Positions 9,872 through 55,757 of a DNA stretch of 64,000 nucleotides are shown here, piece by piece. The stretch comes from Solirubrobacter soli DSM 22325 (GTDB lineage: Bacteria > Actinomycetota > Thermoleophilia > Solirubrobacterales > Solirubrobacteraceae): assembly GCF_000423665.1 (NCBI RefSeq), contig NZ_AUIK01000010.1:186001-250000 (forward strand). The letters are read 5' to 3'. A model generated the notes under the pieces. The model saw only the letters and a program-made list of their open reading frames with translations, had not been told where the DNA came from and ran no database searches. A program made the position numbers and the translations under genes. The number at the start of each line of letters is the position of its first letter. Within the stretch, counting starts at the first letter, position 1.

Positions 9872-9883
9872 GTTCATCTGGCT

Positions 9884-9913: not shown

Positions 9914-9916
9914 CGC

Positions 9917-9981: not shown

Positions 9982-9998
9982 AAAGAGAGGGAAGATTC

Positions 9999-12449: not shown

Positions 12450-12458
12450 TCGAGTGTT

Positions 12459-12490
12459 CGGCCTCCGTGGATCATTTTCCACGGAGGCCG
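12459..12490 (+). terminator. Hairpin terminator after protease gene 3
   Basis: A perfect 13-bp stem, CGGCCTCCGTGGA (12459-12471) with 12478-12490, and a 6-base loop TCATTT. It shares the CCTCCGTGGA core with the two previous terminators. Confidence 0.75.
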
Positions 12491-12492
12491 TC

Positions 12493-12554
12493 TTGACCTG
12501 ACCTTTAGCTCTCCGCGACCATTCATGAGAGGGCGGCAAGATGCCGCTGGGTCT
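12493..12554 (+). promoter_or_regulatory. Promoter and hairpin leader of protease gene 4
   Basis: TTGACC at 12493-12498 matches the -35 boxes of genes 2 and 3, but the -10 is weak (around 12517-12524). The leader hairpin GCGGCA/TGCCGC (12533-12538 / 12542-12547) has a 3-base loop, then one T and GGGTCT (12549-12554). AGGAGGG follows, before the ATG at 12569. Confidence 0.5.
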
Positions 12555-12568
12555 ATAGGAGGGCTTAG

Positions 12569-25070: not shown

Positions 25071-25865
25071 CTACGGGCCGATGTCCACCCAGACGGCGTG
25101 GATCTCGGAGTCGATCTCGGCCATGTCGGTGGCCCAGACCTGGAGCTTGTAGCGGCGCAGCTTGTCGCGCAGGGCCTTCGGCGGCTTGATCGAGGCGCTC
25201 ACCTCGCCCGCGTTGGTCTCCACGACCTCGGTGGCGACGACCTTCTTGCCGCGCTTGAGCCGCAGCGTCAGCGTCCCCGCCTCGGAGACGCGGACCTTGA
25301 CCTTGGCCGCCGTCTCGGTCTCCTTGACCGAGAGCAGGTCGACGGTCGGCGCGGTGGTGTCGCCCTCCTCGAAGACCGTCGGCGGCGTCGTGGTGTTGGG
25401 CAGCGCCGGCGGGCCGGTCGGGGCGTCCGGGTCCTCCCAGTTGGGGTCGGTCCAGGGCTGGCCCGGGTCCAGCGGCGCGCCCGGGTCGGTCGTGCCGACC
25501 ACGAGCTGGCCGTTCATGCCGCCCTGGGTCAGGCCGCCATGGATCGAGCAGTAGAACTGGTACGTCCCGGGCGCGTCGAGCACCTTCGTCGCCTTCGGCC
25601 CCAGGTAGGACGCGCCCAGCTGCTGCGGCGCGCCGCCGGGGGCGACGAGCCACAGGTCGTGGGTCGCCGCGTTCGGGTTGCCCGGCTGCGTGAAGCGCCA
25701 CTCGATCGTGTCCCCCACCTGCGCGGGCACGTTGCGCGGCGTCCAGAGCGTGCGGAACGTCGGCGTGTCGAACGCCTGGATCGCCCGCGTCACCGCGGCC
25801 GAGGCCGACGCCGTCGGGAGGACGGCGGCCGCGACGAGCGCGCCGATCAGGACCCGGCGGATCAC
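25071..25865 (-). CDS. Secreted cupredoxin-domain copper protein
   Basis: GTG 25865 overlaps the stop of the multicopper oxidase gene as GTGA, so the two are translationally coupled. The 264-residue product has a signal peptide (VIRRVLIGALVAAAVLPTAS) and a plastocyanin-like domain at about 28-130. The type-1 copper ligands are visible: His in AATHDLW, and Cys-His-Met in YCSIHGGLTQGGM. After a Pro/Thr linker the last 90 residues form a Lys-rich beta domain. It is likely an electron carrier or copper donor for the adjacent oxidase outside the membrane. Confidence 0.85.
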   Translation of the reverse strand: MIRRVLIGALVAAAVLPTASASAAVTRAIQAFDTPTFRTLWTPRNVPAQVGDTIEWRFTQPGNPNAATHDLWLVAPGGAPQQLGASYLGPKATKVLDAPGTYQFYCSIHGGLTQGGMNGQLVVGTTDPGAPLDPGQPWTDPNWEDPDAPTGPPALPNTTTPPTVFEEGDTTAPTVDLLSVKETETAAKVKVRVSEAGTLTLRLKRGKKVVATEVVETNAGEVSASIKPPKALRDKLRRYKLQVWATDMAEIDSEIHAVWVDIGP

Positions 25866-27328
25866 GCGACCACCTCCATCTGGCCCATCATCGACATGTC
25901 GCCGTGCTCGGCGGCGTGGCAGTGGAAGACGTAGACGCCCGAGTAGTAGTCGAAGTACGGCCGCACGACCACCGTCTGATGCGCGTAGACGGGGACCGTG
26001 TCCTTCCAGCCCGCGTCGCCCGGATGCGGCGGTTGCCCGTCGATCGAGACGATCCGGAAGTGGTAGCCGTGCATGTGCATCGGGTGCGTGCGCTCGGACG
26101 TGTTCACCCACGTCCAGAGCTCGGTCGTCCCCTGCCGCGGCTTGGCGTCGATCCGGTTCTCCGAGAAGCCGCCGCCCGCGATCCGCCACACCGAGCCGCC
26201 GCCGGCCAGACCCTCGAAGGTCAGCGGCCACGAGCGCTCCATGTTGACCTCGGGCAGCTCCTCGTCCTCGGCGAGCTGCTTCGGGATTCGCGCCTCCTCG
26301 GCGCCGCCCTTGACGACGTCGAAGCGCATCACCGCGGTCGTCGAGGACTCGCCGATCGTGTTGCGCAGGACGACCTTGGAGCCGACGCCGAACTGGCGGA
26401 AGTCGACCAGCACGTCGACGCGCTCGGCCGGCTCCATCGGGATCGACGTGCGCGCCACCGGCTTGCCCGGCAGCAGCCCGCCATCGGAGCCGATCTGGAT
26501 CATCTTGCGCCCGTTGCCCAGCTCGAGCTTGTAGGGCCGGGCATTGGACGCGTTGAGGAACCGCAGCCGGTAGATCCGCCGCTCGACCGTCATCCGCGGC
26601 GCGACCGCGCCGTTGACGAGGATCGTGTCGCCGCGGAAGCCGCGGTCGAGGTCGAACCGGTAGCGGAAGGAGCCGTCGGCGTTGAACGAGCGGTCCTGGA
26701 TCATCAACGGCACGTCGTACTTGCCCTGCGGCAGGTCGAGGTGCGCATCGTCCTTGTCATCCAGCAGGTAGAAGCCGGCCAGGCCCGCGAACAGCGTCAG
26801 GTGCGTCTCGCCGTGCGCGTGGTCGTGGTACCAGAGCGTCGCCGCGCGGGCGACGTTCGGGTACTTGTACAGCCGCTCCGTCCCGGTCGGGATGAAGTCG
26901 TGCGGGTGGCCGTCGAACTGCGGCTCCGTCACCCCGCCGTGCAGGTGCACGTTCAGGTCGCGCCCGCTCTGGTTGATCTGGCGGATCTGCACCTCGCGCC
27001 CGCGCGTGGCCTTGATCGTCGGCCCCGGGTAGAGGCCGTTGTAGCCCAGCACCGGCGTCTCGAGCCCGGTCAGGATGTCCGCCGTTCCCGGCTTCATCGT
27101 GATCGTGTACTGCTCGAGGTCCTTGGTCGCCGACGTCGGCGTGGCCACCGGCGGGATCGGCAGGTCGTGCTGGAAGGCGTCGAACGGGGTCGAGGACGCC
27201 GAGCGCACGAACGCCGAGGTCTTCTTGCCGTTCGTCGCCTTGCGCGGGTCGGCCTTGAAGGAACAGACCAGGGCGATGCCCCCGAAGCCGCGGGTCAGCG
27301 CGCCGCGGCGGGTGATTCCGTCGCTCAT
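25862..27328 (-). CDS. Multicopper oxidase (CotA/bilirubin oxidase-like)
   Basis: A 488-residue laccase-type oxidase. All four copper motifs are present: HLHGG (about residue 130), WYHDHAHGETHL, HPMHMHGYHF and the type-1/trinuclear motif HCHAAEHGDMSMM. The arrangement resembles CotA-like and bilirubin oxidases, which couple one-electron oxidations to reduction of oxygen to water. The N-terminus has RRG and a Gly-rich segment that could be a weak Tat or lipoprotein-like signal (ITRRGALTRGFGGIALVCSF). It is coupled to the cupredoxin gene and sits downstream of junction element C. Confidence 0.92.
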   Translation of the reverse strand: MSDGITRRGALTRGFGGIALVCSFKADPRKATNGKKTSAFVRSASSTPFDAFQHDLPIPPVATPTSATKDLEQYTITMKPGTADILTGLETPVLGYNGLYPGPTIKATRGREVQIRQINQSGRDLNVHLHGGVTEPQFDGHPHDFIPTGTERLYKYPNVARAATLWYHDHAHGETHLTLFAGLAGFYLLDDKDDAHLDLPQGKYDVPLMIQDRSFNADGSFRYRFDLDRGFRGDTILVNGAVAPRMTVERRIYRLRFLNASNARPYKLELGNGRKMIQIGSDGGLLPGKPVARTSIPMEPAERVDVLVDFRQFGVGSKVVLRNTIGESSTTAVMRFDVVKGGAEEARIPKQLAEDEELPEVNMERSWPLTFEGLAGGGSVWRIAGGGFSENRIDAKPRQGTTELWTWVNTSERTHPMHMHGYHFRIVSIDGQPPHPGDAGWKDTVPVYAHQTVVVRPYFDYYSGVYVFHCHAAEHGDMSMMGQMEVVA

Positions 27329-27349: not shown

Positions 27350-27397
27350 GACGCCTGAAACCCGCGGCTGGGGCCGCGGCGAACGTGGGTCAGGCTC
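27350..27397 (-). repeat. 48-nt junction element, copy C (triple cupredoxin/multicopper oxidase)
   Basis: On the minus strand GAGCCTGA overlaps the stop of the upstream gene and TCAGGC (plus strand 27353-27358) closes it 31 bases after the 5' arm (27390-27395), a perfect 6-bp pairing. The interior forms CCGCGGC-CCCA-GCCGCGG (27362-27379). It ends 21 bases before the oxidase ATG. Same length and spacing as copies A, B and D. Confidence 0.7.
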
Positions 27398-29144
27398 ATC
27401 GCGCGCGTCCCTTGCCCTTGAGGTTGATCTTCCGTGTCACGGTCGTCTGACCGATCGGCCCCGCCAGCGTGAGCGTGGCCGTGGTCTTGACCGTGCCTCT
27501 CCAGTCATCCAACGCCGCCTCGGCGGCGTCGTTCGGTTTCAGCTTGACCGTGAAGCGCCCGTTGGCGTCGCAGGTCGCCTTGGCCTGGCTGAGCTTGGTG
27601 CCCTTGAGGCCGATCTGATCGGCGACCGCCTTGGAGACCGTCAGGGTCATCGTGCCCGACCCGGCCGAGACGCAGCGGGCGACGACCTTCAGCTTGCCCT
27701 TGAGGAACTGCGCGACCGTCGTGGTCTTGACCGCGGGCGCGTCGATCGCCGCCCAGATGTTCGCCACCTTCGCCGGCGTCGTGTCGCGCGGCGGCTCGGG
27801 CGTGGCCGTGACCGTCGGCGTCGCGGTCGGCGACGTGGTCGGGACCGGCGTCGGCTCCGTACCGTCGTCGTTGCGGACCGTGATCGATCCGGTCATCTCC
27901 GTCGCGTGGGCGGAGCAGACGAACGAGTAGACCCCGGGCGTGTCGAACGTGCACTCGCCGGTCCAGCTCGCCGGCTGCGCGAACGCGGGCAGCGGCGGGC
28001 CGGGGGTGATCGCGATGCCGGTCTTCTGGACGCACGAGGTCGGCGCCGTGGTGAACACGACGTTGTGCGCGCTCGTTCCCGCGGGGTAGCTGAAGTCGAC
28101 GGTCGCGCCCTTGTTGACCGTGACGGTGTTGTCGGCCGCGTCGGAGCTGGACGCGTCCTGGAACCAGTTCTTGACCGTTGGGCTGGTCGTGTCGTGGGCG
28201 ACGATCCCGGCGCGGCCGACCGGCGTGGTCGTCGGCGTCGCGGTAGGCGTCGCCGTCGGCGTGGCGGTCGGGGTCGCGGTCGGCGTCGGAGTCGGCTCGC
28301 CACCCGCCTCGACGATGACCGTGCCGCTCATCTCGGCCGGGTGCGTCGAGCAGACGAACGTGTACGTGCCCGGCGTGTCGAAGGTGCAGGTGCCCTCCCA
28401 GCCGATCCCCTGCGCGAAGCCCGGCATCGGCGGCGCGTTGTCCGGGTCCAGGAACGGGACCGTGTTGGCCATCTTGGTCTGCGGGCACAGCGCCGGCTCG
28501 GGCGCGTTCGGGAACGTGACGTTGTGCGCGCTGGCGCCGGCCGGGTAGGCGAACGTGACCGTCCCGCCCGCCTTGATCGTCACTGAGTTGTCGTTCGCGT
28601 CACCCGTGACGTCCTGGAACCAGTTGCGCAGCGGGCTGGCCGAGTCGTGCGCCTCGACGCGCGCGGTGTTGGGCGTCGAGGTCGGCGTCGCGGTGGGCGT
28701 CGCCGTCGGGGTTGCCGTCGGGGTCGCCTCGGCGTGGACGACGACCGTCCCCTTGTTCTTGTCCGGGTCGACCCCCGAGTGGTACGTGTACGTGCCGGGC
28801 CTGGTGAACGTGCAGGTGCCGGCCCACGGCGCGGCCTGCAGCCACCACGGCAGCGTCGTCCCATCACCCCAGACGGGTCCTTCCGTCTGCTGGCACGACG
28901 CCGGCTCGAGGCTGCCGCGGTCCCACACGACGTTGAAACGACCCGTGCCGGTCGGGTAGGCGAAGTTCACCTTCCCGCCGACGAGGATGTCAACGGTCGC
29001 GGGCGCGAAGCCACCCGCATCCGACACGACGACGCTTGCCGAAGACGGCGGGTCTGCCTGACCCAGAGCAAGCGCAGGAACGACTGCTGCCGCCATCGTG
29101 GCGCAGACGACCCATGGCAGGTATCTCCTCCTCCTGCGGCCCAA
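27396..29144 (-). CDS. Secreted protein with three cupredoxin domains in tandem
   Basis: A 582-residue protein. TTG 29144 is preceded by AGGAGGGGG at 6 bases. Signal peptide 1-27; cupredoxin-like domains at about 30-136, 158-278 and 312-420, joined by ATPTATPT linkers; a C-terminal beta domain at about 460-582. Domains 2 and 3 keep ligands His (SAHNVTF, SAHNVVF) and Cys-His-Met (CSTHPAEM, CSAHATEM). Domain 1 lacks them (FNVVW, YHSGVDPDKNKG) and probably binds no copper. Unlike its relatives at 35650 and 37594 it lacks the TLTFTL tail. Likely an extracellular electron-transfer or copper-binding protein. Confidence 0.85.
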   Translation of the reverse strand: MGRRRRRYLPWVVCATMAAAVVPALALGQADPPSSASVVVSDAGGFAPATVDILVGGKVNFAYPTGTGRFNVVWDRGSLEPASCQQTEGPVWGDGTTLPWWLQAAPWAGTCTFTRPGTYTYHSGVDPDKNKGTVVVHAEATPTATPTATPTATPTSTPNTARVEAHDSASPLRNWFQDVTGDANDNSVTIKAGGTVTFAYPAGASAHNVTFPNAPEPALCPQTKMANTVPFLDPDNAPPMPGFAQGIGWEGTCTFDTPGTYTFVCSTHPAEMSGTVIVEAGGEPTPTPTATPTATPTATPTATPTTTPVGRAGIVAHDTTSPTVKNWFQDASSSDAADNTVTVNKGATVDFSYPAGTSAHNVVFTTAPTSCVQKTGIAITPGPPLPAFAQPASWTGECTFDTPGVYSFVCSAHATEMTGSITVRNDDGTEPTPVPTTSPTATPTVTATPEPPRDTTPAKVANIWAAIDAPAVKTTTVAQFLKGKLKVVARCVSAGSGTMTLTVSKAVADQIGLKGTKLSQAKATCDANGRFTVKLKPNDAAEAALDDWRGTVKTTATLTLAGPIGQTTVTRKINLKGKGRAR

Positions 29145-29231: not shown

Positions 29232-31355
29232 CTAAACAAACCGCCCAGGCCACCAGTTCTTCTCATTTAACAGGAGAGCGACGGACGGAACAAAGAACGT
29301 GCGAACGAGGAAGGCGTCGACGATCAGGCCGAGCGACACCGTGAAGCCGACCTGGAAGAGCGCCTCGAGGTCGAGCGCCATGAGCGCGGCGAACGTGCCC
29401 GCGAGGATCAGGCCGGCCGAGGTGATGACCCCGCCCGTCCGCTCCAGGCCGGCGATCACGGCCTCGCGGGTGCTGAGACCACGGCGATGCTCCTCGCGGA
29501 TCCGGGTCATCAGGAAGATGTTGTCGTCGACCCCCAGCGCGACCAGGAAGATGAAGCAGAAGATCGCCAGGTTGGGGTCCGATCCGGACTGCCCGAGGAC
29601 GTGGGTGAAGATCAGCGAGGAGATCCCGAGCGCGAACGCGAACGACAGGATCACGGTGCCGATCAGGTACAGCGGCGCCACCACGCAGCGCAGCAGGGCG
29701 ATCAGCACGATCAGGATCAGGATCAGGACCAGCGGCACGATCAGCTTCGCGTCGCGGTGCAGCGCCTGCAGGTTGTCGTGGTTCTCGGCCGTCACACCCC
29801 CGATCAGCACCGTCTGCCCCTGCCCCGCCTTGCGCGCGACGTCGCGGATCCGCGGGATCATGTCCATCGTCGAGCGTTTGAACGGGTCCACCGAGAGCAG
29901 CACCTCGGTCGAGATCAGGTTGCCGTCGGTGGACTGGGAGTCGGTGTTGGCGTCGGCGATGCCCTTGGTGATGCGCAGCTGGTCGCGGACCTGGAGCGCG
30001 ACCGGCGCGGACGTGACGAGGTCCAGCGGCGCGACCCGGCCGGGCGGGAAGCGCTTGAGGATCAGCTCCTGCCCCTGGACGGACTCCGGGGCGTTGCGGT
30101 ACTGCTGGGAGAGATCCAGGTAGTCGCGGCCCTCGAGGTTGCCGAGCGCGCCGAGCGCGAGGAGTGCGGCGCAGCCGAACGCGAGCCGACGCGGGTGGCG
30201 GCGGACGAGCTCCGAGACGCGCTTCCACCCCGGACCGACCGCGGGAGCCTCCGGCTCGACCTTGGGGATCGCGGGCCAGAACGCCCGCCGGCCGAACGCC
30301 ACCAGCAGCGCCGGCATCAGCGTCAGCCCCACGGCCATCATCACGACGATGCCGAGCGCGAGGATCGGCCCCATCTCGCGCGTCGCGTTGAAGTCGGCGA
30401 GGCCGAGCACGAGCATCGCGGCGACGACGATCCCGCCCGAGGCGAGGATCGCCGGCGAGGTGCGCGCGGTCGCCCGTGCCGCCGCGGCGTCCACGTCCGC
30501 GTCGCGGCGCAACTCGTCGCGGAAGCGGCTGACGATCAGCAGGCAGTAGTCGGTGCCCGCGCCGAACATCAGCACGATCAGGATCGCCGTCGACTGGCCG
30601 CTGACCGTCGTCGCGCCCGCCTCGACGAGGCCATAGACAGCACCCGTCGCGATCAGGTAGGCGATCGCCACCACGCCCAGCATCAGCGCCGCGATCAACG
30701 GCGAGCGATACGTCAGCAGCATCAGGGCGAGGACGAGCACCATCGTGATCGTCAGCAACGTCCCGTCGATCCCCTCGACCGCGGCGCTGCGGTCGGCGTC
30801 GAAGCCCGCGGGGCCCGTCACGAAGCTGCGCAGCGGCTCCGCGGTCGGCTTCGGCGCGATCGCGCGGATGGCGGCGACGTCGCGCGACACCGACTCGGTG
30901 TCGTCCTTGCGGCTGATCACCGGGACGAGCACCATCGTCTCGGGCGAGTCGTTGGAGAACGCCGACGGCGGGTTCTCCGGGCCGAGGTCGTGGCCGATGT
31001 CGCCGCACGCCACGCCGCCGGGGGCGCCGACGCCCTGGAGGTTCGGCAGCGTCGGCGAAGCGCAGATCTTGTCCATCGTCTCCGCGATGAGGCTGTTCTG
31101 CTCGTAGATCGAGCCGCGCGTCGCCTGGAACGCGATCACCGCGGTCGACCACGGTCCTTCCCGGAAGCGGCCGTCGAGCAGGTGGTGGACGGTCGTGGAC
31201 TCCGCCCCACGTGCCCGGAACGTCTCGCTCTCGTCAGCCGCCTTGGCCTGGAGCTTGGGCTGCAGGCCGGCGAGCGCGACGGCGAGCAGCAGCCAGGTGC
31301 CGATCACCAGCCAGCGCGAACGCCGCCCGAGTGGGAAGGAAGTGAAAGTACGCAT
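29232..31355 (-). CDS. MMPL/RND-family membrane transporter
   Basis: A 707-residue integral membrane protein with two six-TM halves, each preceded by an extracytoplasmic loop: TM1 at about 15-33, loop to about 200, five TM helices to about 365, TM7 at about 390, a second loop, five more helices. The conserved GAGTDYCLLIVSRFRDEL and GVDDNIFLMTRIREE lie in TM4 and TM10 as in MMPL proteins, where such Asp residues relay protons. Family members export lipids or small molecules. The start (ATG 31355) lies only 10 bases after a terminator-like hairpin. Substrate unknown. Confidence 0.88.
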   Translation of the reverse strand: MRTFTSFPLGRRSRWLVIGTWLLLAVALAGLQPKLQAKAADESETFRARGAESTTVHHLLDGRFREGPWSTAVIAFQATRGSIYEQNSLIAETMDKICASPTLPNLQGVGAPGGVACGDIGHDLGPENPPSAFSNDSPETMVLVPVISRKDDTESVSRDVAAIRAIAPKPTAEPLRSFVTGPAGFDADRSAAVEGIDGTLLTITMVLVLALMLLTYRSPLIAALMLGVVAIAYLIATGAVYGLVEAGATTVSGQSTAILIVLMFGAGTDYCLLIVSRFRDELRRDADVDAAAARATARTSPAILASGGIVVAAMLVLGLADFNATREMGPILALGIVVMMAVGLTLMPALLVAFGRRAFWPAIPKVEPEAPAVGPGWKRVSELVRRHPRRLAFGCAALLALGALGNLEGRDYLDLSQQYRNAPESVQGQELILKRFPPGRVAPLDLVTSAPVALQVRDQLRITKGIADANTDSQSTDGNLISTEVLLSVDPFKRSTMDMIPRIRDVARKAGQGQTVLIGGVTAENHDNLQALHRDAKLIVPLVLILILIVLIALLRCVVAPLYLIGTVILSFAFALGISSLIFTHVLGQSGSDPNLAIFCFIFLVALGVDDNIFLMTRIREEHRRGLSTREAVIAGLERTGGVITSAGLILAGTFAALMALDLEALFQVGFTVSLGLIVDAFLVRTFFVPSVALLLNEKNWWPGRFV

Positions 31356-31449: not shown

Positions 31450-34400
31450 TTACGGCGTGGTGGTGGCCAGGGTGAAGAGCAGGGTCTTCGAGTACTGGCC
31501 CGCGCGGAGGGCGTCGTTCGCCGCGACCGGCTGCTGGAAGCCCAGCGTCACCGCGTCGTTGGAGATCGGCGCCGCCCAGTTGAGCAGTGTCAGCGGGCTG
31601 CCGGAGACATCCGCGTATGTCGTGTTCGGGTTGGCGGCGTTGGTGGCGCGCGCCTTCAGGGCCTGCGGCAGGAACGACGTCCCGTTCGCATGCACCAGGC
31701 GGCCCGGAGCGGTCGTGCCCGGGTCGACGACCGTCAGCGCCGCGTTGCCCGCGGAGGAGACGACGTTGGCCGTGGTCGACGCCGTGTACGTGTTAGCGAC
31801 GGCCGGCACGATCGCGCCGAACGTGGCCGGAGCGCCGAGCGTCAGGCCGAGGACGGTCGGGACCGTCGCGGTGACCGTGGACGGCTCGGTCGTCGGGACG
31901 TCGACGTCGAACGTCTTGGTCGAGACCTGGCCGTCCGCGTACGTGACCGCCAGGGTCGCCTGCTGCTTGCCGCCCTTGAGGTACGTGTAGGTCGCGGTCG
32001 GGCCCGACTGCTTGGACCCGTCCGGGAAGCTCCACTCGTAGGAGACGCCACCGGACTTGCCGATGTTGAACGCCACCTTGCTCGAGTTGCCGGTGGTGTA
32101 CTGCGGGTCGGGACCCGGAGTGTCGTCGCCGCCGGTGTACGCGAAGCGCCAGACGCCGGTGTTGGCGTTGGAGATCGTGAAGTTCGAGCCGGAGTAGCTG
32201 GCCACGTAGAGCGCGCCGTCGGCCCCGAAGTCGAGGTCGATGGTGCGGTTGTTGTTCATCAGGCTGGTCGGGACGATGCCGTACAGCGAGTCGGCCGAGA
32301 CCGGCGCGCCGCCGTCGAACTCCGTCGCCGGATCCATGAGCAGCGCGTGGCGGATGTTCGTGCCGCCGGCGAAGTCCGACAGGAACCAGCGGCCGTCCCA
32401 GTAGGCGGGCCAGGCGCCGGCCTTGGCGTTGTCCGGACGGCGGTACGTACCGGCCGTCATCGGGGCCTGGCTGCCACCGAACGCGAACGGGCAGCGACGG
32501 AACGCGTTCTCGTCGTTGGCCGCGGTGTTCGTGGCGTTGTAGATCGCGACCCCGTTGGCGTTGCGCTTGAAGTCGTAGCAACCGCCCTGCGGGCCGTACC
32601 AGATGTTGACCGGCTTCGGGGCGGGGATGTCCTTCAGGCCCGTGTTGTACGGGGAGTCGTTGGCGACCGGCTTGCCCGACGTGCAGTCCCAGAAGGCGCC
32701 CGTCTGGCCGTCCGCGCCACCGCCGACCGTGCCGCGCACGTTGTCGGTCAGGTTCGCCGCGCCGCCGCCGCCCGTGGTGGACGGGAGCTTCGCGCGATAG
32801 TCGAACCGGTTACCGGCCTGGCAGTAGGGCCAGCCGTAGTTGCCGGCCTTGTTGATCTGCGTCGCGTTCTCGGTCTTCGCCGGACCCCACGTGGTGGAGT
32901 TCGTGCCCTGGTCGGGGCCGACCCACGAGGCGGAGATCTTGTCCGTCTTGGAGTCGATGTCGATCGAGTACAGGTTGCGCACGCCCATGGCGAAGACCTC
33001 GGGCTTGGCCAGCTTGTCCTTCACGGCCTGGCTGTCCTCGGGGAACAGGTTGCCGCCGTTCGGGGCGTCGGCGCCCGGGATCGTGTACGTCGTGCCGATA
33101 CCGGGGACGTTGCCCGGGTTGTCCATCGGGTGGATGCGCAGCAGCTTGCCTTCCCAGGCGTTGGTGTTGCCCGAGGTCTGGCGCGCGTCGGCGAAGGAGA
33201 TCGTGCCGCCGCCGGACGTCGTGTTGTGGTTGGCGCGGACCACGCCGTCGACCGGGACGGTGTAGTTCGGGCTCGAGTTGGTGTAGCCGCCGTTGTTGGA
33301 GTTCGGCGTGTTGCCCGTGTTGTCGCCGGAGGCGAAGTACAGGTTGCCCTTGGAGTCCCAGTCCATCGAGCCGCCGAGGTGGCAGCAGGAGTAGACCTGG
33401 GTCATCCAGTGGAAGATGACCTTCTCCGAGCCCGCGACGAGCGTCTTGGTCGCCGGGTCGTAGGTGAAGCGCGACAGTCGCCGCTCGCCCATGAACGACT
33501 GGCGGTCGAAGCCCGGGCCGAGCTGCTTGGCCGGGTCGGTCGTGTACGTGCCCTGCTCACCCATGAAGTACGGGTGGTACTGGACGTAGATGTACGGGCG
33601 GCCGTTGGTGAAGTTGGGGTCCAGGGCGATGCCGAGGATGCCCTGCTCGTCCTTGGACGTCTGGCCCGACTCCGAGCCGCCGCCCTTGGCGCCGAAGACC
33701 GTCAGGTCGGCGACCTTGGCGACCTTGGCCGCGTTCTGGTCGTCGGAGCCGGCGACGTTCGGATCCCACACGTGGATCGTGCCGCAGCCCTTGCCGACCG
33801 TCGGGCGGCCGAGGCTGTCCAGCGGCGCGTCCCAGTTCGTGGTCTGTGGCATGTTCTGGAAGCAGACCGCGCGGCCGGCGTAGAACACGCGACCGTCCTT
33901 GGCCATCGCGAGGCCGTCGATCTCGCCCGTGAACGGGTTCAGGCCCTGCGTGTCGCCGGGCGGCGCCGGGTTCGGCACGGCCGGGTTCTGCGGCGTCAGG
34001 CGCGTCGCGGTGTAGTTGGAGTTGATCGTCGCCTTGCAGTTGCCGCGGACCATGCCGGCGGCCCACTGGATGGCGCCGAGCAGCTGCTTCTTGACGGCGT
34101 CGTCACCGTAGGAAGCGGCGGTCCCGCCGAGGCCGGTGTAGAAGGAGCGGCCCTGCTGGACGTCACGGCACCACGACAGCGCGCGCTCCTGCTGCGGCTG
34201 GATCGTGTTGGTCGTGCCCGTGAAGCGGGTGACGGCGTCGTTGGTGACCGACGTGCCGTCGGGCAGCACGTTGAAGCGCACGCGGGCGACCGTGTGGACC
34301 TGACCCGTCGGGTTCGCGGTCCAGGCGTAGTAGTTGTCCGAGTGGGCCTTCCACAGCAGCGGGTTGGCGCGCGTGGCCGGGTGGACGCGGTCGAGGAACT

Positions 34401-34875
34401 CGACGTCCTGCGCGGAGACCGCGGACGCGGCCGTCGTGCGCGGGTTGCCCGTGAGGCCGATGAGCGTGTCGAAGAAGGCGTTGCCCTCCTCGAGCTTGGC
34501 CGTCTCGCCGATGCCGACGAAGCCGCCGCCGCCCTGGACGTAGCCCTGCAGCGAGGCTTCCTGCTCCGGGTTGAGCGCGTCGCCCGCCGAGTTGACGAAC
34601 GTGACCGCGCGATAGCCCGCGAGGTTCGCCGTGCTGATCTTCGTCGCGTCGTTGGTGACGTCGACGGTGAAGTTGTTCGCAGCGCCCAGCGCCTGGATCG
34701 CGGCCGCGGCGGGTGCGGTGGCGTCGTTCGCTGCGCCGGCCGTCCCCGTGAACACGAGCACCTTGCCCGCGTCAGCCGACGCCGGCGAAGCCCCGAGCAT
34801 CGCGGTGAGCGCGAACGCTCCACCCATTGCAAGCACCGCACGCGTGCGGCGTCCCACAGCTGTTCCCATCCCCAC
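31450..34875 (-). CDS. Secreted ThuA-like plus PQQ-type sugar dehydrogenase-like protein with shared tail
   Basis: A 1141-residue secreted protein. Signal peptide 1-34; residues about 36-265 resemble the ThuA/trehalose-utilisation fold (GKVLVFTGT, EQEASLQGYVQGGGGFVGIG). About 290-900 is a six-bladed propeller of the soluble PQQ glucose/sorbosone dehydrogenase type (EQGILGIALDPNF, GGSMDWDSKGNLYFASGDN, GNYGWPYC). About 925-995 is PKD-like (VSYEWSFPDGSKQSGPTATY). The last 140 residues are the shared tail ending in LLFTLATTTP. Probably oxidises or binds a sugar at the cell surface. GTG 34875 or ATG 34869 may be the start; GGAGGAGG lies upstream. Confidence 0.85.
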   Translation of the reverse strand: MGMGTAVGRRTRAVLAMGGAFALTAMLGASPASADAGKVLVFTGTAGAANDATAPAAAAIQALGAANNFTVDVTNDATKISTANLAGYRAVTFVNSAGDALNPEQEASLQGYVQGGGGFVGIGETAKLEEGNAFFDTLIGLTGNPRTTAASAVSAQDVEFLDRVHPATRANPLLWKAHSDNYYAWTANPTGQVHTVARVRFNVLPDGTSVTNDAVTRFTGTTNTIQPQQERALSWCRDVQQGRSFYTGLGGTAASYGDDAVKKQLLGAIQWAAGMVRGNCKATINSNYTATRLTPQNPAVPNPAPPGDTQGLNPFTGEIDGLAMAKDGRVFYAGRAVCFQNMPQTTNWDAPLDSLGRPTVGKGCGTIHVWDPNVAGSDDQNAAKVAKVADLTVFGAKGGGSESGQTSKDEQGILGIALDPNFTNGRPYIYVQYHPYFMGEQGTYTTDPAKQLGPGFDRQSFMGERRLSRFTYDPATKTLVAGSEKVIFHWMTQVYSCCHLGGSMDWDSKGNLYFASGDNTGNTPNSNNGGYTNSSPNYTVPVDGVVRANHNTTSGGGTISFADARQTSGNTNAWEGKLLRIHPMDNPGNVPGIGTTYTIPGADAPNGGNLFPEDSQAVKDKLAKPEVFAMGVRNLYSIDIDSKTDKISASWVGPDQGTNSTTWGPAKTENATQINKAGNYGWPYCQAGNRFDYRAKLPSTTGGGGAANLTDNVRGTVGGGADGQTGAFWDCTSGKPVANDSPYNTGLKDIPAPKPVNIWYGPQGGCYDFKRNANGVAIYNATNTAANDENAFRRCPFAFGGSQAPMTAGTYRRPDNAKAGAWPAYWDGRWFLSDFAGGTNIRHALLMDPATEFDGGAPVSADSLYGIVPTSLMNNNRTIDLDFGADGALYVASYSGSNFTISNANTGVWRFAYTGGDDTPGPDPQYTTGNSSKVAFNIGKSGGVSYEWSFPDGSKQSGPTATYTYLKGGKQQATLAVTYADGQVSTKTFDVDVPTTEPSTVTATVPTVLGLTLGAPATFGAIVPAVANTYTASTTANVVSSAGNAALTVVDPGTTAPGRLVHANGTSFLPQALKARATNAANPNTTYADVSGSPLTLLNWAAPISNDAVTLGFQQPVAANDALRAGQYSKTLLFTLATTTP

Positions 34876-34910
34876 TCTCCCCTCCTCCGAAGACGAACTG
34901 CCCCGTCCCG

Positions 34911-34987
34911 ATGCTATTCAGCTTCCGGTACTCATGTCAACAGCTTTTGCATCGCGAATTCGCAAAAGTCGTGGATTACGCTAGGGA
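34911..34987. promoter_or_regulatory. Divergent promoters sharing a TTTTGC-N11-GCAAAA site
   Basis: For the minus-strand gene: TTGACA (plus 34935-34940) and TAGCAT (34911-34916), 18 bases apart. Abutting the -35 is a 25-bp inverted repeat CTTTTGC-N11-GCAAAAG (34944-34968). For the plus-strand lipoprotein: TTCGCA (34959-34964), 17 bases, TAGGGA (34982-34987). A similar site lies at 37477-37501 and a degenerate one at 43721-43744. Confidence 0.6.
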
Positions 34988-35021
34988 CACGCAAAAAAGG
35001 GTGCGCGATGAGGAGAGAAAG

Positions 35022-35600
35022 ATGAATCCACGGAGGGTCAGAACGGCGCTAGCCGTCCCGTTGGTCGCGGGATTGCTGGCCGGCTGCGGGGGTTCCAGCG
35101 ACAAGCCGGCGCCGCCCGAGAAGGGCAAGGTCGTCCGTGGCGAGACCGAGACCGGCATGAAGATGACGGTCGACACCTTCCTCCCGGTCGCCGACGATCC
35201 GGTCCTCAAGAAGCTCGATGCCTACAGAGCGAAGGGTCACTACCCCGCGGTCGACTACCACCGCGTCACGGCCGACAACACGGCCGGTCAGGTGCCGGAC
35301 CAGGGGCGCGAGGTCACGTTCGCCAAGGACGCCAACGCGATCGCGACGGGCCAGGGCGTGGAGACCCGCTTCGTCTGCGACCTGCTGCGCTTCGAGTGGG
35401 TGCCGTTGCAGGGCATGGAGCAGGCGCACGCCGAGCTCCAGGACGAGCTCTGCAAGAACGGGCCGCCGAAGCCGAATGGCATCGAGCCTGGTCAGAAGCA
35501 GGTCTACTACGTGATCACCGACCGCGGTTTCGGGCAGCGCGGTATCAGAAGCCAGAAGATCTTCGGGCCGCGCAGCGCGGAGTTCACCCCGGCCACGTGA
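35022..35600 (+). CDS. Putative lipoprotein of unknown function
   Basis: A 192-residue protein with a lipobox signal (LVAGLLAGC at residues 15-23), so it should be lipid-anchored at Cys23 on the outer face of the membrane. ATG 35022 follows GGAGAGAAAG. The mature part is charged with two further Cys (RFVCDLL, DELCKNG), which may form a disulfide. No family recognised. Divergent from the ThuA/dehydrogenase-like gene with a common operator-like repeat, so the two may be co-regulated. A strong hairpin follows the stop. Confidence 0.75.
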   Translation: MNPRRVRTALAVPLVAGLLAGCGGSSDKPAPPEKGKVVRGETETGMKMTVDTFLPVADDPVLKKLDAYRAKGHYPAVDYHRVTADNTAGQVPDQGREVTFAKDANAIATGQGVETRFVCDLLRFEWVPLQGMEQAHAELQDELCKNGPPKPNGIEPGQKQVYYVITDRGFGQRGIRSQKIFGPRSAEFTPAT

Positions 35601-35649: not shown

Positions 35650-37404
<1,755 letters not shown>

Positions 37405-37593: not shown

Positions 37594-40500
37594 CTACGGT
37601 GTCGTCGTCGAGAGCGTGAACGTCAGCGTCTTCGTGTACGCCCCGCTCCGCAACGGCTCGTTCGCCCCGATCGTCTGGCGCAGCGTGATCGTCACCGCGT
37701 CCGCGGAGATCACGGTCGGGTAGGTCAGCAGCGTCAGCGGGTTGGCGGCACCCGTGATCGGCGCGAACGCCGCCGTCGGCTGCACCGGGCTGGTCGCCCG
37801 CGCGTTGATCGGGTTCACGAGCGCGCTCGTGCCGTTGACCATCCGGCCCGTCGCGACGTCGCTCGGGTCGGCGACGGTCAGGGCCGCGGTCGCGGCCGAG
37901 CTCGTCACCACCGCCGTGGTCGAGGCCGTGTAGTCGGCGCCCACACCCGGCGTGAACGCGCCGAACGTCGCCGGCCCGCCGAGCGTCAGCGCCAGCGTGG
38001 GCGGCACGTCGCCGGTGATCACGGTCGGGACGCTCGTCGCGGTCGGCGTCGCCGTCGGGGTGGCCGTCGGCGTCGCGGTGGGCGTGGCGGTCGGCGTCGC
38101 CGTCGGGGTGGCCGTGGGCGTCGCCGTCGGGGTCGGCGTCGCGACCGCCTCGACCGTGAACGCCCGGGTCGCCGGCGTGGCGTCGACGTTGCCCGCCGCG
38201 TCCTTCGCCCGCACCGAGAACGTGTAGTTCCCGAGCGTGGCCGTCGTGTACGCCTGCGGCGACGTGCACGCGGCGTAGGTCCCCGCGCCGGACGGCGTGT
38301 CGAGCTTGCACTCGAACGTCGCCCCCGCCTCGGACGTGAACGTGAACGACTGGCTCGTCGAGGTCGTCGTCCCGCTCGGGCCGCCCGTGATCGTCGTGTC
38401 CGGCGCGACCGTGTCCACGGTGAAGGCCCGCGTCGCGGGCGTCGCGTCGACGTTGCCGGCCGCGTCGGTCGCGCGCACGCTGAACGTGTACGCCCCGTTG
38501 GCCGTCGTGCTGTACGCCTGCGGCGAGGTGCAGGCCGCGTAGGTGCCCGCGCCGGACGGCGTGTCGAGCTTGCACTCGAACGTCGCCCCCGCCTCGGAGG
38601 TGAACGTGAACGACTGGCTCGTCGAGCTCGTCGTCCCGGTCACGCCACCGGTGATCGTGGTGTCCGGCGCGGCCGTGTCGACCGTGAACGTCCGCGTGGC
38701 CGGCGACGCGTCAGGCGTCCCCAGGCCGTCGGTGGCCCGCACGCTGAACGTGTACGAGCCGTCCGCCAGCGCGGTGTAGGCCTTCGGCGTGGTGCACGCG
38801 GCGTAGGTGCCGGTCGCCGCGCCCGGACCGTCGAGCTTGCACTCGAAGGTCGAGCCCGGCTTGGTCGAGCTGAAGCCGAACGACGGCGACGCGTTGTTGG
38901 TCGTGCCGGTCGGGCCGCTCGTGATCGAGGTGTCCGGCGCGGAGGTCTCGACGGTGAACGTCCGCGTCGCGGGCGTCGCGTCGACGTTGCCGGCAGCGTC
39001 CGTCGCCCGCACCGAGAACGTGTACGAGCCGTCCGCCAGCGGGCCGTAGGCCTTCAGCGACGTGCAGCTCGCGTATGTGCCCGTCGAGGCACCCGGGCCG
39101 TCGAGCTTGCACTCGAACGTCGCCCCCGCCTCGGACGAGAACCCGAACGACGGCGACGCGTTGTTGGTCGTGCCGGTCGGACCCGACGTGATCGTCGTGT
39201 CCGGCGCCGCCGTGTCGACCGTGAACGAGCGGGTCGCGGGGCTCGGATCCGGCGTGCCGGTCGAGTCCGTCGCCCGCACCGTGAACGTGTACGAACCATC
39301 CGCCAGGCCGCTGTAGGCCTTCGGCGACGTGCACGCGGCGTACGAGCCCGTGGCGGCCCCCGGGCCGTCGAGCTTGCACTCGAACGTTGACCCGGCCTTC
39401 GTCGAGGAGAACGTGAACGACGGGGACCCACTGTTGGTCACGCCGCTCGGACCCGAGTTGATCGTCGTGTCCGGCGCGGCCGTGTCAACGGTGAACGTCC
39501 GCGTCGCGGGCGAGCCGTCGACGTTGCCGGCGGCATCGGTCGCCCGCACCGAGAACGTGTACGCGCCGTCCACCAGCGGGCCGTAGGCCTTCGGCGACGT
39601 GCAGGCCGCGTACGTGCCCGTCGTCGCGCCCGGCCCGTCGAGCTTGCACTCGAACGTCGAGCCCGTCTCGGAGCTCGTGAACCCGAACGACGGCGAGGCG
39701 TTGTTCGTGGTGCCGGTCGGACCCGAGTTGATCGTCGTGTCCGGCGCCGCCGTGTCGACCGTGAACGTCCGCGTCGCGGGGCTCGGATCCGGCGTCCCCG
39801 TCGGGTCGGTCGCGCGCACCGAGAGGGTGTACGCGCCGTCGGCCAGCGGACCGTAGGCCTTGGGCGAGGTGCAGGCCGCGTACGTGCCCGTCGTCGCCCC
39901 CGGGCCGTCGAGCTTGCACTCGAACGTCGACCCGGCCTTCGTCGAGGAGAACGTGAACGACGGCGAGGCGTTGTTCGTCGCGCCGCTCGGACCGGTGTTG
40001 ATCGACGTGTCCGGCGCGGCCGTGTCGACCGTGAACGCCCGCGTCGCGGGCGTCGCGTCCACGTTGCCGGCTGCGTCGGTCGCCCGCACCGAGAACGTGT
40101 AGGCGCCGTCGACCAGCGGACCGTAGGCGCGCGGCGAGGTGCAGCTCGAGTAGGTGCCGGTGGTCGCGCCCGGGCCGTCGAGCTTGCACTCGAACGTCGA
40201 GCCCGTCTCGGAGCTCGTGAACCCGAACGACGGCGAGGCGTTGTTCGTGGTGCCGGTCGGGCCCGAGTTGATCGTCGTGTCCGGCGCGGCCGTGTCGACC
40301 GTGAACGACCGCGTCGCGGGCGTCGCGTCGACGTTGCCGGCGGCATCTGTCGCCCGCACGCTGAACGTGTAGGCCCCGTTGGCCGTCGTCGTGTACGCCT
40401 GCGGCGAGGTGCACGCGGCGTAGGTGCCCGCCCCGGCCGGCGTGTCGAGCTTGCACTCGAACGTCGACCCGGTCTCGGAGCTCGTGAACGCGAACGACGG

Positions 40501-43500
40501 CGCCGTGCCGTTGGTCGCGCCCGACGGACCCGACGCGATCGTCGTGTCGGGCGCCGCCGTGTCGACCGTGAAGGAGCGGGTCGCCGGCGTCGCGTCGGTG
40601 TTGCCCGCGGCGTCGGTCGCCCGGACGGAGAACGTGTAGCTGCCGTTCGCGGTGCTGGTGTACGCCCGCGGCGAGGTGCAGGACGCGTAGGTCCCCGCGC
40701 CCGCCGGCGTGTCGAGCTTGCACTCGAACGTCGCACCCGCCTCGGACGTGAACGTGAACGACGGCGCCGTCTGGTTCGTCGTCCCGGTCGGGCCGCCCGT
40801 GATCGTCGTGTCGGGCGCGGCCGTGTCGACCGTGAAGGAGCGCGACGCGGCGGTGGCGTCGACGTTGCCGGCCGCGTCGGTCGCGCGCACGAGGAACGTG
40901 TACGCGCCGTCGGCCAGCGAGCCGAGGATGCGAGGCGACGTGCACGGGCCGTAGGAGCCGACCGCGGCGCCCGGGCCGTCCAGGCGGCACTCGAACGTCG
41001 AGCCGGTCTCGGTGCTCGTGAACGTCATCGTCGTGTTGTTGACGTTGATCGGGCCGTTCGCGCCGCCCGTGATCGTCGTGTCCGGGGCGGCGGTGTCGAC
41101 CGTGAACGCGCGCGTCGCCGGCGACGGGTCAGGCGTGCCCAGGCTGTCGGTCGCCCGCACGCTGAACGTGTATGCGCCGTCCGCGAGCGAGCTGTACACC
41201 CGCGGCGAGGTGCACGCGGCGTAGGTGCCGGTCGCCGCGCCCGGGCCGTCGAGCTTGCACTCGAAGGTCGAGCCGGACTTCGTGGAGGTGAACGCGAACG
41301 AGGGCGAGGCGTTGTTGGTCGTGCCCGTCGGGCCGGACGTGATCGAGGTGTCCGGCGCGGAGGTCTCGACGGTGAACGCGCGCGTCGCCGGCGTGGCGTC
41401 GACGTTGCCGGCGGCGTCGGTCGCGCGCACGGAGAACGTGTAGGAGCCGTCCGTCAGCGGGCCGACGACCCGCGGCGACGTGCAGCTCACGTACGTCCCG
41501 GTCGTCGCGCCTGGGCCGTCGAGCTTGCACTCGAACGTCGACCCGGTCTCGGAGCTCGTGAACCCGAAGGACGGCGAGGTCTGGTTGGTCGTGCCGGTCG
41601 GACCCGAGTTGATCGTGGTGTCCGGAGCGGCCGTGTCGACGGTGAACGAGCGCGTCGCCGGCGTCGGATCGACGTTGCCCGCGGCGTCGGTCGCCCGCAC
41701 GCTGAACGTGTAGGCGCCGTTGGCGGTCGTCGTGTACGCCTGCGGCGAGGTGCAGGCCGCGTAGGTGCCCGCACCGGCAGGCGTGTCGAGCTTGCACTCG
41801 AAGGTCGAGCCGACCTCGGTGCCCGAGAACTGGAACGACGGCGCGGTGCCGTTGGTCGTCCCGCTCGGGCCGCTGTTGATCGTGGTGTCGGGCGCGGCCG
41901 TGTCGACCGTGAACGAGCGCGTCGCCGGCGTCGCGTCGACGTTGCCCACCGCGTCGGTCGCCCGCACGCTGAAGGTGTACGTGCCGTCCGCGAGCGAGCT
42001 GTACGCCCGCGGCGAGGTGCAGCTCGCGTACGTGCCCGTCGTGGCGCCGGGGCCGTCGAGCTTGCACTCGAACGTCGCCCCCGCCTCGGACGAGAACCCG
42101 AAGGACGGCGACGCGTTGCTCGTCGCGCCCGAGGGACCCGAGCCGATCGTCGTGTCCGGCGCCACCGTGTCGACCGTGAAGGAGCGGGTCGCCGGCGACG
42201 GGTCGACGTTGCCGGCCGCGTCGGTCGCCCGCACGCTGAAGGTGTAGGCGCCGTTGGCCGTCGTCGTGTACGACCGCGGCGAGGTGCAGGACGCGTACGT
42301 CCCCGCGCCCGCCGGCGTGTCGAGCTTGCACTCGAACGTCGCGCCGGCCTCAGACGTGAACGTGAACGACGGCGCCGTCTGGTTCGTCGTCCCGGTCGGG
42401 CCGCCGGTGATGGTCGTATCCGGTGGCCCTGTGTCCACCGTGAAGGATCTGGTCGCCGGTGTCGGGTCGACGTTGCCCGCCGGGAACGCCGAGCGGACGC
42501 TGAAGGTGTAGTTGCCGTTGGCGGTCGTGGTGTAGGCGGCGGGCGACGTGCAGGCCGCGTACGTCCCCGCGCCGGACGGCGTGTCGAGCTTGCACTCGAA
42601 CGTCGCCCCTACCGCTGTGGATGTGAAGGTGAACGACGCGTTGGTCGTGTTGGTCGGCCCCTGCGGGCCGCCCGTGATGTTCGTGTCCGGGGGCGTCGGC
42701 GTCGCGGTGGGCGTCGCGGTCGGTGTCGGTGTGGCCACCGGTTCGACGACCACCGTGCCGGTCATCTCCGGATGGATGCCGCAGACGAAGCTGTATGTCC
42801 CGGCGGCATCGAACTGGCAGTAGCCCTCCCAGCCCGCGGGTTGGAACGAGTCCGGCATCGGTGGGACCGTGTCGGCGTCGTTGACCGGGAACGACGGTGA
42901 GTTCTTGGTCTTGACGCACGTCGCCGGCTTCGGGTTGGTGTTGAACGCGACGTTGTGGACGCTCGTGCCCGACGGGTAGTTGAACGTCACGCGCTCGCCG
43001 GCCTTGATCGTGACGCTGTGGTCCGAGGTGTCGGAGGAGGAGGCGTCCTGCCACCAGTTGGGGACCCCGTCGTGGCCCGAGATCGTCGCTCCGGTCGGCG
43101 TGCTCGTCGGGGTGGCGGTCGGGGTCGCGGTGGGCGTGGCGGTCGGGGTCGCCGTCGGCGTCGGCGTGACGGACCCGGTCACGATGACCTCGCCCGTCAT
43201 CGCGGTGCCGTGGGCCTCGCAGAAGAACGTGTAGGTGCCGGAGGCGTTGAACTTGCACTCGCCCGCCCACCCCGGTGACTGCGAGTGGTCAGGCAGCGGC
43301 TCGACCGTGTTGGTGTCGGGCTCGAAGCCCTCAGGGGCCTCGGTCTGGACGCACGACGTGGGCTTGGCCTCGTCGTCGAAGATCACGTTGTGAACGCTGT
43401 TGTTGGTCCCGTTGGCGGGGTAGGTGAAGGTGACGGTGTCGCCCGGGTTGATCGTCACCGAGTTGTCCTCGGGGGCCGTCCCGTTGGCGTCCACGTAGAA

Positions 43501-43641
43501 GTTGTCGCCGACGACGAACGCGCCGTTCGCCTTCGGTTGCTGCGGCTGCGGGTCACGCGCGGGAGCGCCCCACGCGAGCGTGGGGACGACGATGACCGCG
43601 ATCACCGCGCACGCCAGCCATGGCAAGACCGACTTCCTCAT
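37594..43641 (-). CDS. Giant surface protein: two cupredoxins, 17 Ig-like repeats, shared tail
   Basis: A 2015-residue secreted protein. ATG 43641 is chosen (signal peptide [28 protein letters not shown] upstream); a TTG at 43650 is possible. Cupredoxin domains lie at about 35-157 and 184-300 with His and Cys-His-Met ligands (CEAHGTAM, CGIHPEM). Residues about 316-1832 hold 17 Ig-like repeats of roughly 89 residues, each with two Cys (FECKLD and ACTSP contexts) and an SFTVDTAAPDTTI-type junction. An ATPTATPT linker and the shared tail (ending TLTFTLSTTTP) follow. Looks like a wall-attached stalk presenting copper domains; binding partner unknown. Confidence 0.88.
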   Translation of the reverse strand: MRKSVLPWLACAVIAVIVVPTLAWGAPARDPQPQQPKANGAFVVGDNFYVDANGTAPEDNSVTINPGDTVTFTYPANGTNNSVHNVIFDDEAKPTSCVQTEAPEGFEPDTNTVEPLPDHSQSPGWAGECKFNASGTYTFFCEAHGTAMTGEVIVTGSVTPTPTATPTATPTATPTATPTSTPTGATISGHDGVPNWWQDASSSDTSDHSVTIKAGERVTFNYPSGTSVHNVAFNTNPKPATCVKTKNSPSFPVNDADTVPPMPDSFQPAGWEGYCQFDAAGTYSFVCGIHPEMTGTVVVEPVATPTPTATPTATPTPPDTNITGGPQGPTNTTNASFTFTSTAVGATFECKLDTPSGAGTYAACTSPAAYTTTANGNYTFSVRSAFPAGNVDPTPATRSFTVDTGPPDTTITGGPTGTTNQTAPSFTFTSEAGATFECKLDTPAGAGTYASCTSPRSYTTTANGAYTFSVRATDAAGNVDPSPATRSFTVDTVAPDTTIGSGPSGATSNASPSFGFSSEAGATFECKLDGPGATTGTYASCTSPRAYSSLADGTYTFSVRATDAVGNVDATPATRSFTVDTAAPDTTINSGPSGTTNGTAPSFQFSGTEVGSTFECKLDTPAGAGTYAACTSPQAYTTTANGAYTFSVRATDAAGNVDPTPATRSFTVDTAAPDTTINSGPTGTTNQTSPSFGFTSSETGSTFECKLDGPGATTGTYVSCTSPRVVGPLTDGSYTFSVRATDAAGNVDATPATRAFTVETSAPDTSITSGPTGTTNNASPSFAFTSTKSGSTFECKLDGPGAATGTYAACTSPRVYSSLADGAYTFSVRATDSLGTPDPSPATRAFTVDTAAPDTTITGGANGPINVNNTTMTFTSTETGSTFECRLDGPGAAVGSYGPCTSPRILGSLADGAYTFLVRATDAAGNVDATAASRSFTVDTAAPDTTITGGPTGTTNQTAPSFTFTSEAGATFECKLDTPAGAGTYASCTSPRAYTSTANGSYTFSVRATDAAGNTDATPATRSFTVDTAAPDTTIASGPSGATNGTAPSFAFTSSETGSTFECKLDTPAGAGTYAACTSPQAYTTTANGAYTFSVRATDAAGNVDATPATRSFTVDTAAPDTTINSGPTGTTNNASPSFGFTSSETGSTFECKLDGPGATTGTYSSCTSPRAYGPLVDGAYTFSVRATDAAGNVDATPATRAFTVDTAAPDTSINTGPSGATNNASPSFTFSSTKAGSTFECKLDGPGATTGTYAACTSPKAYGPLADGAYTLSVRATDPTGTPDPSPATRTFTVDTAAPDTTINSGPTGTTNNASPSFGFTSSETGSTFECKLDGPGATTGTYAACTSPKAYGPLVDGAYTFSVRATDAAGNVDGSPATRTFTVDTAAPDTTINSGPSGVTNSGSPSFTFSSTKAGSTFECKLDGPGAATGSYAACTSPKAYSGLADGSYTFTVRATDSTGTPDPSPATRSFTVDTAAPDTTITSGPTGTTNNASPSFGFSSEAGATFECKLDGPGASTGTYASCTSLKAYGPLADGSYTFSVRATDAAGNVDATPATRTFTVETSAPDTSITSGPTGTTNNASPSFGFSSTKPGSTFECKLDGPGAATGTYAACTTPKAYTALADGSYTFSVRATDGLGTPDASPATRTFTVDTAAPDTTITGGVTGTTSSTSQSFTFTSEAGATFECKLDTPSGAGTYAACTSPQAYSTTANGAYTFSVRATDAAGNVDATPATRAFTVDTVAPDTTITGGPSGTTTSTSQSFTFTSEAGATFECKLDTPSGAGTYAACTSPQAYTTATLGNYTFSVRAKDAAGNVDATPATRAFTVEAVATPTPTATPTATPTATPTATPTATPTATPTATPTATSVPTVITGDVPPTLALTLGGPATFGAFTPGVGADYTASTTAVVTSSAATAALTVADPSDVATGRMVNGTSALVNPINARATSPVQPTAAFAPITGAANPLTLLTYPTVISADAVTITLRQTIGANEPLRSGAYTKTLTFTLSTTTP
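38147..42695. repeat. Seventeen roughly 267-bp repeats encoding Ig-like domains
   Basis: About 4.5 kb of tandem, closely similar coding units on the minus strand. Two flavours occur: one with LDTP(A/S)GAG and ANG, the other with LDGPGA(T/A)TG and ADG. They do not alternate strictly. Near-identity of neighbouring units points to recent expansion by unequal exchange, and copy number may vary between strains or be collapsed in short-read assemblies. Confidence 0.9.
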
Positions 43642-55661: not shown

Positions 55662-55757
55662 GGGGTCAGGCCCCGGTATGCAAGTCGTATGCAGGGGTCA
55701 GGCCCCGGTATGCAAGTCGCATGCAGGGGTCAGGCCCCGGTATGCAAGTCGTATGCA
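55662..55757. repeat. Three 32-bp tandem repeats carrying GGGGTCAGGCCCC
   Basis: Units 55662-55693, 55694-55725 and 55726-55757 differ at one base. Each is GGGGTCAGGCCCC plus a 19-base tail with TATGCA twice. It lies between two convergent genes (stop 55637 and stop 55770), so it may terminate both. Core shared with 15331-15343 and 37576-37588. Confidence 0.85.

What the first reader, a model, noticed from the sequence alone, without database searches (positions are those of the whole stretch)
37594..43641. 2015-residue copper-tipped stalk with 17 two-cysteine Ig-like repeats
Two cupredoxin domains at the N-terminus, 17 near-identical repeats with a disulfide-type Cys pair each (34 Cys), then a TP linker and the tail. 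The repeat count looks recently expanded. Copper centres at the end of a long surface stalk suggest contact electron transfer or copper capture.
Basis: partly seen in the sequence, partly recalled or inferred. Interest (0 to 1): 0.6.

Follow-up and report, generated by a model that had tools for sequence, protein, structure and literature searches.

The report
Copper-tipped stalk with unnamed C-terminal domain
A soil bacterium (genus Solirubrobacter) encodes a long secreted protein with two copper-binding domains, a rod of 17 Ig-like repeats and a C-terminal domain that no family library names but that ends 100 or more exported proteins in this genome; it sits beside a multicopper oxidase gene, which suggests electron traffic at the cell surface.

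Summary
The gene is real: one 2015-codon frame (37594-43641, minus strand) with a signal peptide, two plastocyanin-type cupredoxins with His/Cys/His/Met ligands, 17 Big_13 Ig-like repeats with two Cys each, Thr-Pro linkers and a 137-residue tail. "Near-identical, recently expanded" is wrong: the repeats average 73% amino-acid identity, fourfold sites are near the composition background, and the longest exact repeat is 86 bp. Other Solirubrobacter species carry the same architecture with 11, 14, 16 and 20 repeats. (2) The neighbourhood ThuA/dehydrogenase-tail, cupredoxin protein, multicopper oxidase is conserved in all six species examined. Best reading: a surface-held copper redox module in which the cupredoxin pair passes electrons towards the multicopper oxidase. 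Copper capture is the main rival. Surface attachment and electron transfer are inferred, not shown. Interest lies mainly in the tail.

The parts
43564..43641 (-). signal peptide, residues 1-26 ([26 protein letters not shown])
   Evidence: sequence; closely similar start in relatives and in the neighbour gene; ribosome-binding-site-like GGAGGGGGA upstream
43174..43524 (-). cupredoxin 1, residues 40-156; ligands H84, C141, H144, M148; extra Cys pair C97/C129
   Evidence: PF00127; ligands align with plastocyanin 2plt; conserved in relatives
43087..43173 (-). Thr-Pro linker 1
   Evidence: sequence
42733..43086 (-). cupredoxin 2, residues 186-303; ligands H229, C287, H290, M293; extra Cys pair C242/C275
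   Evidence: PF00127/PF13473, second stretch
38140..42690 (-). 17 Big_13 Ig-like repeats, residues 318-1834, two Cys each
   Evidence: TRF period 270, 16.2 copies
38008..38139 (-). Thr-Pro linker 2 before the tail
   Evidence: sequence; the 24 residues before the tail are predicted without strand and with low confidence
37597..38007 (-). C-terminal tail domain, residues 1879-2015, ending at the stop codon; no Pfam, NCBIfam or PDB sequence match
   Evidence: own-genome copies; AlphaFold pLDDT 95.1
35650..37404 (-). neighbour: two cupredoxins + Thr-Pro linker + tail, no Ig repeats; cupredoxins 72% identical to the stalk's
31450..34875 (-). ThuA + glucose/sorbosone-dehydrogenase-type propeller + PKD + tail
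   Evidence: PF06283 4.5e-42; PF07995 1.3e-14; tail
29232..31355 (-). MMPL transporter inside the cluster (also in G003)
27396..29144 (-). triple-cupredoxin protein without the tail; its first domain lacks the Cys ligand
25862..27328 (-). multicopper oxidase with intact copper motifs (HLHG, WYHDHAH, HPMHMHG, HCHAAEHGDMSM)

Best explanation
A secreted copper redox protein held at the cell surface. The C-terminal tail, shared with 100 or more exported proteins of this genome, acts as the attachment module. The 17 Ig-like domains form a disulfide-stabilised rod (about 65-70 nm if extended, inferred from roughly 4 nm per domain) that places two type-1 copper centres at the distal N-terminus. The copper pair shuttles electrons between a donor (a small molecule, or the neighbouring dehydrogenase-like propeller) and the neighbouring multicopper oxidase, which would reduce oxygen. 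Shown here: domains, conserved copper ligands, export-type signal peptide, conserved gene cluster, strict C-terminal position of the tail. Inferred: surface attachment, disulfides, rod geometry, copper loading, direction and partners of electron flow.
For: Type-1 ligand set intact in both domains and in all 11 cupredoxins of five stalk genes. Same architecture in other species with 20, 14, 16 and 11 repeats. Cluster ThuA/dehydrogenase-tail, cupredoxin protein, multicopper oxidase present in all six species examined, with the stalk directly upstream in three; oxidase motifs intact in all. In the named-species loci 109 of 110 tail frames end exactly at the stop and 98 of 103 closed frames start with a signal-peptide-like segment. 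Tail carriers include many hydrolases of the kind that act outside the cell: M14 carboxypeptidases in 14 of 51, also S8, S15, M6, M28.
Against: No localisation, copper or redox data. The dehydrogenase donor is doubtful: own and G003 copies keep the His and Arg-Asn positions of PQQ glucose dehydrogenase, but four relatives carry Arg and Ser-Asp there, and PqqE reaches its cut-off only in G003, not in this genome. In G002 and G004 the stalk lies away from the cluster, and the G004 stalk has a third cupredoxin and a different C-terminus instead of the tail. Cupredoxin tips of the own stalk are closest to its own neighbour gene, not to other species' stalks, so strict orthology is not shown. Multicopper oxidase plus cupredoxins also fits copper detoxification.
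Confidence: 0.42

Rival explanations
1. Copper capture or detoxification at the surface: the cupredoxins bind Cu and the multicopper oxidase oxidises Cu(I), as in CueO/CopA-type copper resistance.
For: Multicopper oxidase and several cupredoxins in one conserved cluster; seven cupredoxin domains encoded within 18 kb.
Against: The ligands are the single-site redox type, not a Met- or His-rich multi-site store; no copper efflux ATPase or copper regulator was recognised among the cluster members examined, although not every frame was scanned; one Cu per domain is a poor store for a 2015-residue protein.
Confidence: 0.25
2. Adhesin or matrix protein: the rod and tail matter and the cupredoxin fold at the tip is used for binding, with little redox role.
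For: Repeats hit adhesin-type models (Ca_tandemer, Big_13); repeat number varies 11-20 between species as in surface rods.
Against: All copper ligands are kept in every tip domain of five genes, which binding alone would not require; conserved link with a multicopper oxidase.
Confidence: 0.18
3. The tail is an export or sorting signal (like type IX CTDs in position and use), removed or used during secretion, rather than the final anchor.
For: Strict C-terminal position on many unrelated exported proteins, as for known C-terminal sorting domains.
Against: No match to the sorting-domain models in NCBIfam. No dedicated secretion machinery was looked for. A monoderm has no outer membrane to cross (general knowledge).
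Confidence: 0.2
4. Repeat number or the frame is an assembly or gene-calling artefact.
For: Draft genome, 50 contigs, 8% contamination estimate.
Against: Longest exact repeat is 86 bp; same architecture in five species from separate assemblies.
Confidence: 0.03

Closest known systems
Plastocyanin/amicyanin-type cupredoxins (PF00127)
   Same: His/Cys/His/Met type-1 ligand order, Pfam and PDB sequence matches
   Different: two in tandem at the end of a long Ig rod; each carries an extra Cys pair
Big_13 / Ca_tandemer Ig-like repeat proteins
   Same: 17 repeats match PF19077, 16 stretches match NF033510
   Different: every repeat of the five stalk genes has exactly two Cys
WxL domain of Firmicutes (PF13731)
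   Same: in position and use: C-terminal module of many exported proteins. WxL binds peptidoglycan and AlphaFold predicts insertion of a partner strand (PMC10599100)
   Different: no Trp-x-Leu motifs; PF13731 finds nothing above cut-off in this genome; many more copies
Csu/type 1 pilin and tip-adhesin pilin domains
   Same: best fold matches of the tail: CsuA/B 7zl4_B Z 8.7, rmsd 2.6, 117 aligned, 20% identity; also the C-terminal pilin domains of CfaE, CsuE, FimH, PapG; same place at the C-terminus of a two-part protein
   Different: no sequence match to SCPU PF05229 above cut-off; no usher or chaperone sought; Foldseek E only 8e-3

Membership tests
Type-1 cupredoxin (PF00127) | His, Cys, His, Met ligands in order, family HMM above cut-off | tested here: met
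   49.9 bits vs cut-off 21.2; alignment to 2plt
Type-1 cupredoxin (PF00127) | binds copper and is redox active | not testable with these tools
   needs protein
Big_13 Ig-like repeat | HMM above cut-off, tandem copies | tested here: met
   334 bits, 17 stretches
[quoted passage not shown]
   best own-genome match 11.1 bits vs cut-off 25; tails lack the motif
WxL domain (PF13731) | binds peptidoglycan | not testable with these tools
   needs binding assay
SCPU / archaic chaperone-usher pilin (PF05229) | family HMM match | tested here: not met
   nothing over cut-off in the genome; the 29 tails match no SCPU model in Pfam
SCPU / archaic chaperone-usher pilin (PF05229) | incomplete Ig fold closed by a donor strand | tested here: inconclusive
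   fold matches Z up to 8.7, near the level of common arrangements; no strand upstream of the tail; coordinates were not inspected
LPXTG sortase substrate | LPXTG-like motif, transmembrane segment and basic end at the C-terminus | tested here: not met
   protein ends ...YTKTLTFTLSTTTP with no such elements; one sortase gene in the genome
Type IX secretion CTD | NCBIfam sorting-domain match | tested here: not met
   no NCBIfam match for the tail query nor in the tail region of the whole protein
PQQ glucose/sorbosone dehydrogenase (neighbour 31450-34875) | catalytic His and PQQ-binding Arg-Asn | tested here: inconclusive
   present in own and G003 copies, replaced in four relatives; assignment of positions rests on alignment and general knowledge
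Multicopper oxidase (neighbour 25862-27328) | four copper-binding motifs | tested here: met

The most novel reading that the evidence does not exclude
The tail is a pilin-like incomplete Ig domain that lets 100 or more exported proteins of a monoderm actinobacterial genus be docked on a common surface receptor by strand donation: a surface-display system parallel to WxL and to tip adhesins, here carrying a copper electron-transfer stalk among its clients.
Probability: 0.15. Interest if true: 0.85.

Novelty: new variant of a known kind. Interest (0 to 1): 0.55.

Why it matters
If the tail is an attachment domain, it would give a function to a C-terminus shared by about a hundred exported proteins of one genus, with no annotation at that end, and a handle for displaying proteins on these little-studied soil bacteria. 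If the cupredoxin tips pass electrons to the multicopper oxidase, it would be an example of copper-based rather than haem-based redox chemistry at the surface of a Gram-positive bacterium, testable in cultured Solirubrobacter species.

Tried and rejected
Naming the genus through the cupredoxin part failed; the tail alignment gave it. Tail against Pfam member by member, NCBIfam and PDB sequences: nothing credible. WxL and SCPU models against the whole genome: nothing above cut-off. No WxL structure appeared among the fold matches, which does not exclude that fold. Idea that a strand just upstream completes the tail fold: the 24 upstream residues are predicted without strand and at low confidence. 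Recent expansion and read-collapse of the repeats: rejected. Literature searches found no description of this tail or of a cupredoxin/dehydrogenase/oxidase cluster of this kind; the library holds open-licence papers only. A first extraction of tails ignored strand and is superseded. The first PDB search with the cupredoxin part used wrong coordinates and was redone.

Full report
Observation. The frame 37594-43641 on the minus strand is open for 2015 codons. From the N-terminus it holds a signal peptide, two plastocyanin-type cupredoxins (PF00127) joined by a Thr-Pro linker, 17 Big_13 Ig-like repeats of 88-90 residues with two Cys each (34 of 41 Cys), a second Thr-Pro linker and a 137-residue tail that ends at the stop codon.

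Repeats. They are not near-identical or recently expanded. Mean identity is 73% (aa) and 77% (nt); the closest pair reaches 91% nt. Fourfold sites agree at 61% where composition alone gives 55%, and the longest exact repeat is 86 bp, so neither a burst of recent copying nor collapse of short reads is likely. The same architecture was found with 20 repeats (S. taibaiensis), 16 (S. deserti), 14 (G002) and 11 (S. phytolaccae, where a third cupredoxin and another C-terminus replace the tail); species names come from contig lengths shared. All 78 repeats of the five genes have exactly two Cys. End repeats match end repeats across species. The cupredoxin tips of the own stalk are, however, closest to those of the neighbouring gene 35650-37404 (72% identity), so local duplication or conversion has occurred and strict one-to-one orthology is not claimed.

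Copper sites. H84, C141, H144, M148 and H229, C287, H290, M293 form two type-1 ligand sets; the set is kept in all 11 cupredoxin domains of the five stalk genes and aligns with plastocyanin 2plt. Copper loading itself was not testable.

Neighbourhood. On the same strand follow a two-cupredoxin protein with the tail (35650-37404), a ThuA + dehydrogenase-type propeller + PKD protein with the tail (31450-34875), an MMPL transporter (29232-31355), a triple-cupredoxin protein (27396-29144) and a multicopper oxidase (25862-27328). The run ThuA/dehydrogenase-tail, triple cupredoxin (double in G003), multicopper oxidase is present in all six species examined, with the stalk directly upstream in own, G005 and G001 (in own with the two-cupredoxin gene between). 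Oxidase copper motifs are intact in every copy checked (the last motif, HCHxxxHxxxxM, was read by eye in the window copy). The dehydrogenase role is uncertain: two positions expected to matter for PQQ are kept in own and G003 only, and PqqE passes its cut-off only in G003.

The tail. A neighbour's tail used as query gave 231 matching pieces in the 9.3 Mb genome. Two strict codon-level motifs of its end each count 113 in the own genome and 33-88 in six other genomes of the genus, with zero matches to the reversed control patterns. An HMM of 29 tails finds many in all seven genus genomes and none or one in 34 other genomes of the family and order; a wider look over about 400 genomes of the class, which scored only ten candidates per genome, found at most three copies outside the genus. 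All 78 named loci are Solirubrobacter. In them 109 of 110 tail frames end exactly at the stop and 98 of 103 closed frames begin with a signal-peptide-like segment by a simple home-made rule, not SignalP. Among 51 carriers 14 are M14 carboxypeptidases; others are S8, S15, S9, M6 and M28 peptidases, ThuA proteins and more. No library names the tail. AlphaFold predicts it with pLDDT 95 as an all-beta domain. Its best fold matches are pilin-type domains (CsuA/B Z 8.7, rmsd 2.6, 117 aligned; tip-adhesin pilin domains; archaeal threads), but the aligner's own notes place a best Z of 7-8 among values common for unmatched models, and Foldseek E is 8e-3, so this is a lead. The 24 residues upstream form no strand. 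In Csu pili such a fold is closed by a donor strand from the next subunit (PMC9452303), and in WxL proteins a partner strand is predicted to insert (PMC10599100); whether anything of the kind happens here is open.

Interpretation. The best-supported reading is a surface-held copper redox protein serving a conserved multicopper-oxidase cluster (confidence 0.42). Copper handling, a plain adhesin, and a sorting-signal role for the tail are live rivals. The stalk by itself combines known parts; the tail is the element without a known name. Whether it is truly undescribed outside the open-access library and these databases cannot be settled here.

Limits. The own genome is a draft with an 8% contamination estimate. 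No experimental data bear on localisation, copper content or electron flow.

Noticed in passing
window 4851-15052 (+): Four tandem M6-like (immune-inhibitor-A type) peptidase paralogues with frames of 821-832 aa, each ending in the same tail domain.
   Followed up: partly
window 55662-55757: Three near-perfect 32-bp direct repeats (GGGGTCAGGCCCCGGTATGCAAGTCGTATGCA, 96% match).
   Followed up: no
L132:509-8779 and L133:505-8604: Tail carriers with open frames of 2756 and 2699 aa in the same genome, matching the ThuA/dehydrogenase query in part.
   Followed up: no
window 34809-35600 (+): Small putative lipoprotein on the opposite strand inside the cluster; a relative lies next to the ThuA gene in G003 (L128:4260-4877). 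No Pfam match.
   Followed up: partly
L131:3692-5222: Short tail proteins near a contig end, one with a single cupredoxin-like domain directly before the tail.
   Followed up: no
G283, G338, G227, G023, G014, G081: One to three tail copies in other genera of the same family; transfer, loss or misbinned contigs not distinguished.
   Followed up: no
G003:C1:106515-107564: PqqE above its cut-off in only one of seven genus genomes, one of the two whose dehydrogenase keeps the PQQ-type residues.
   Followed up: no
window 38140-42690: NCBIfam labels the repeats OmpL47-type beta-barrel and Ca_tandemer adhesin; the names could mislead automatic annotation.
   Followed up: no
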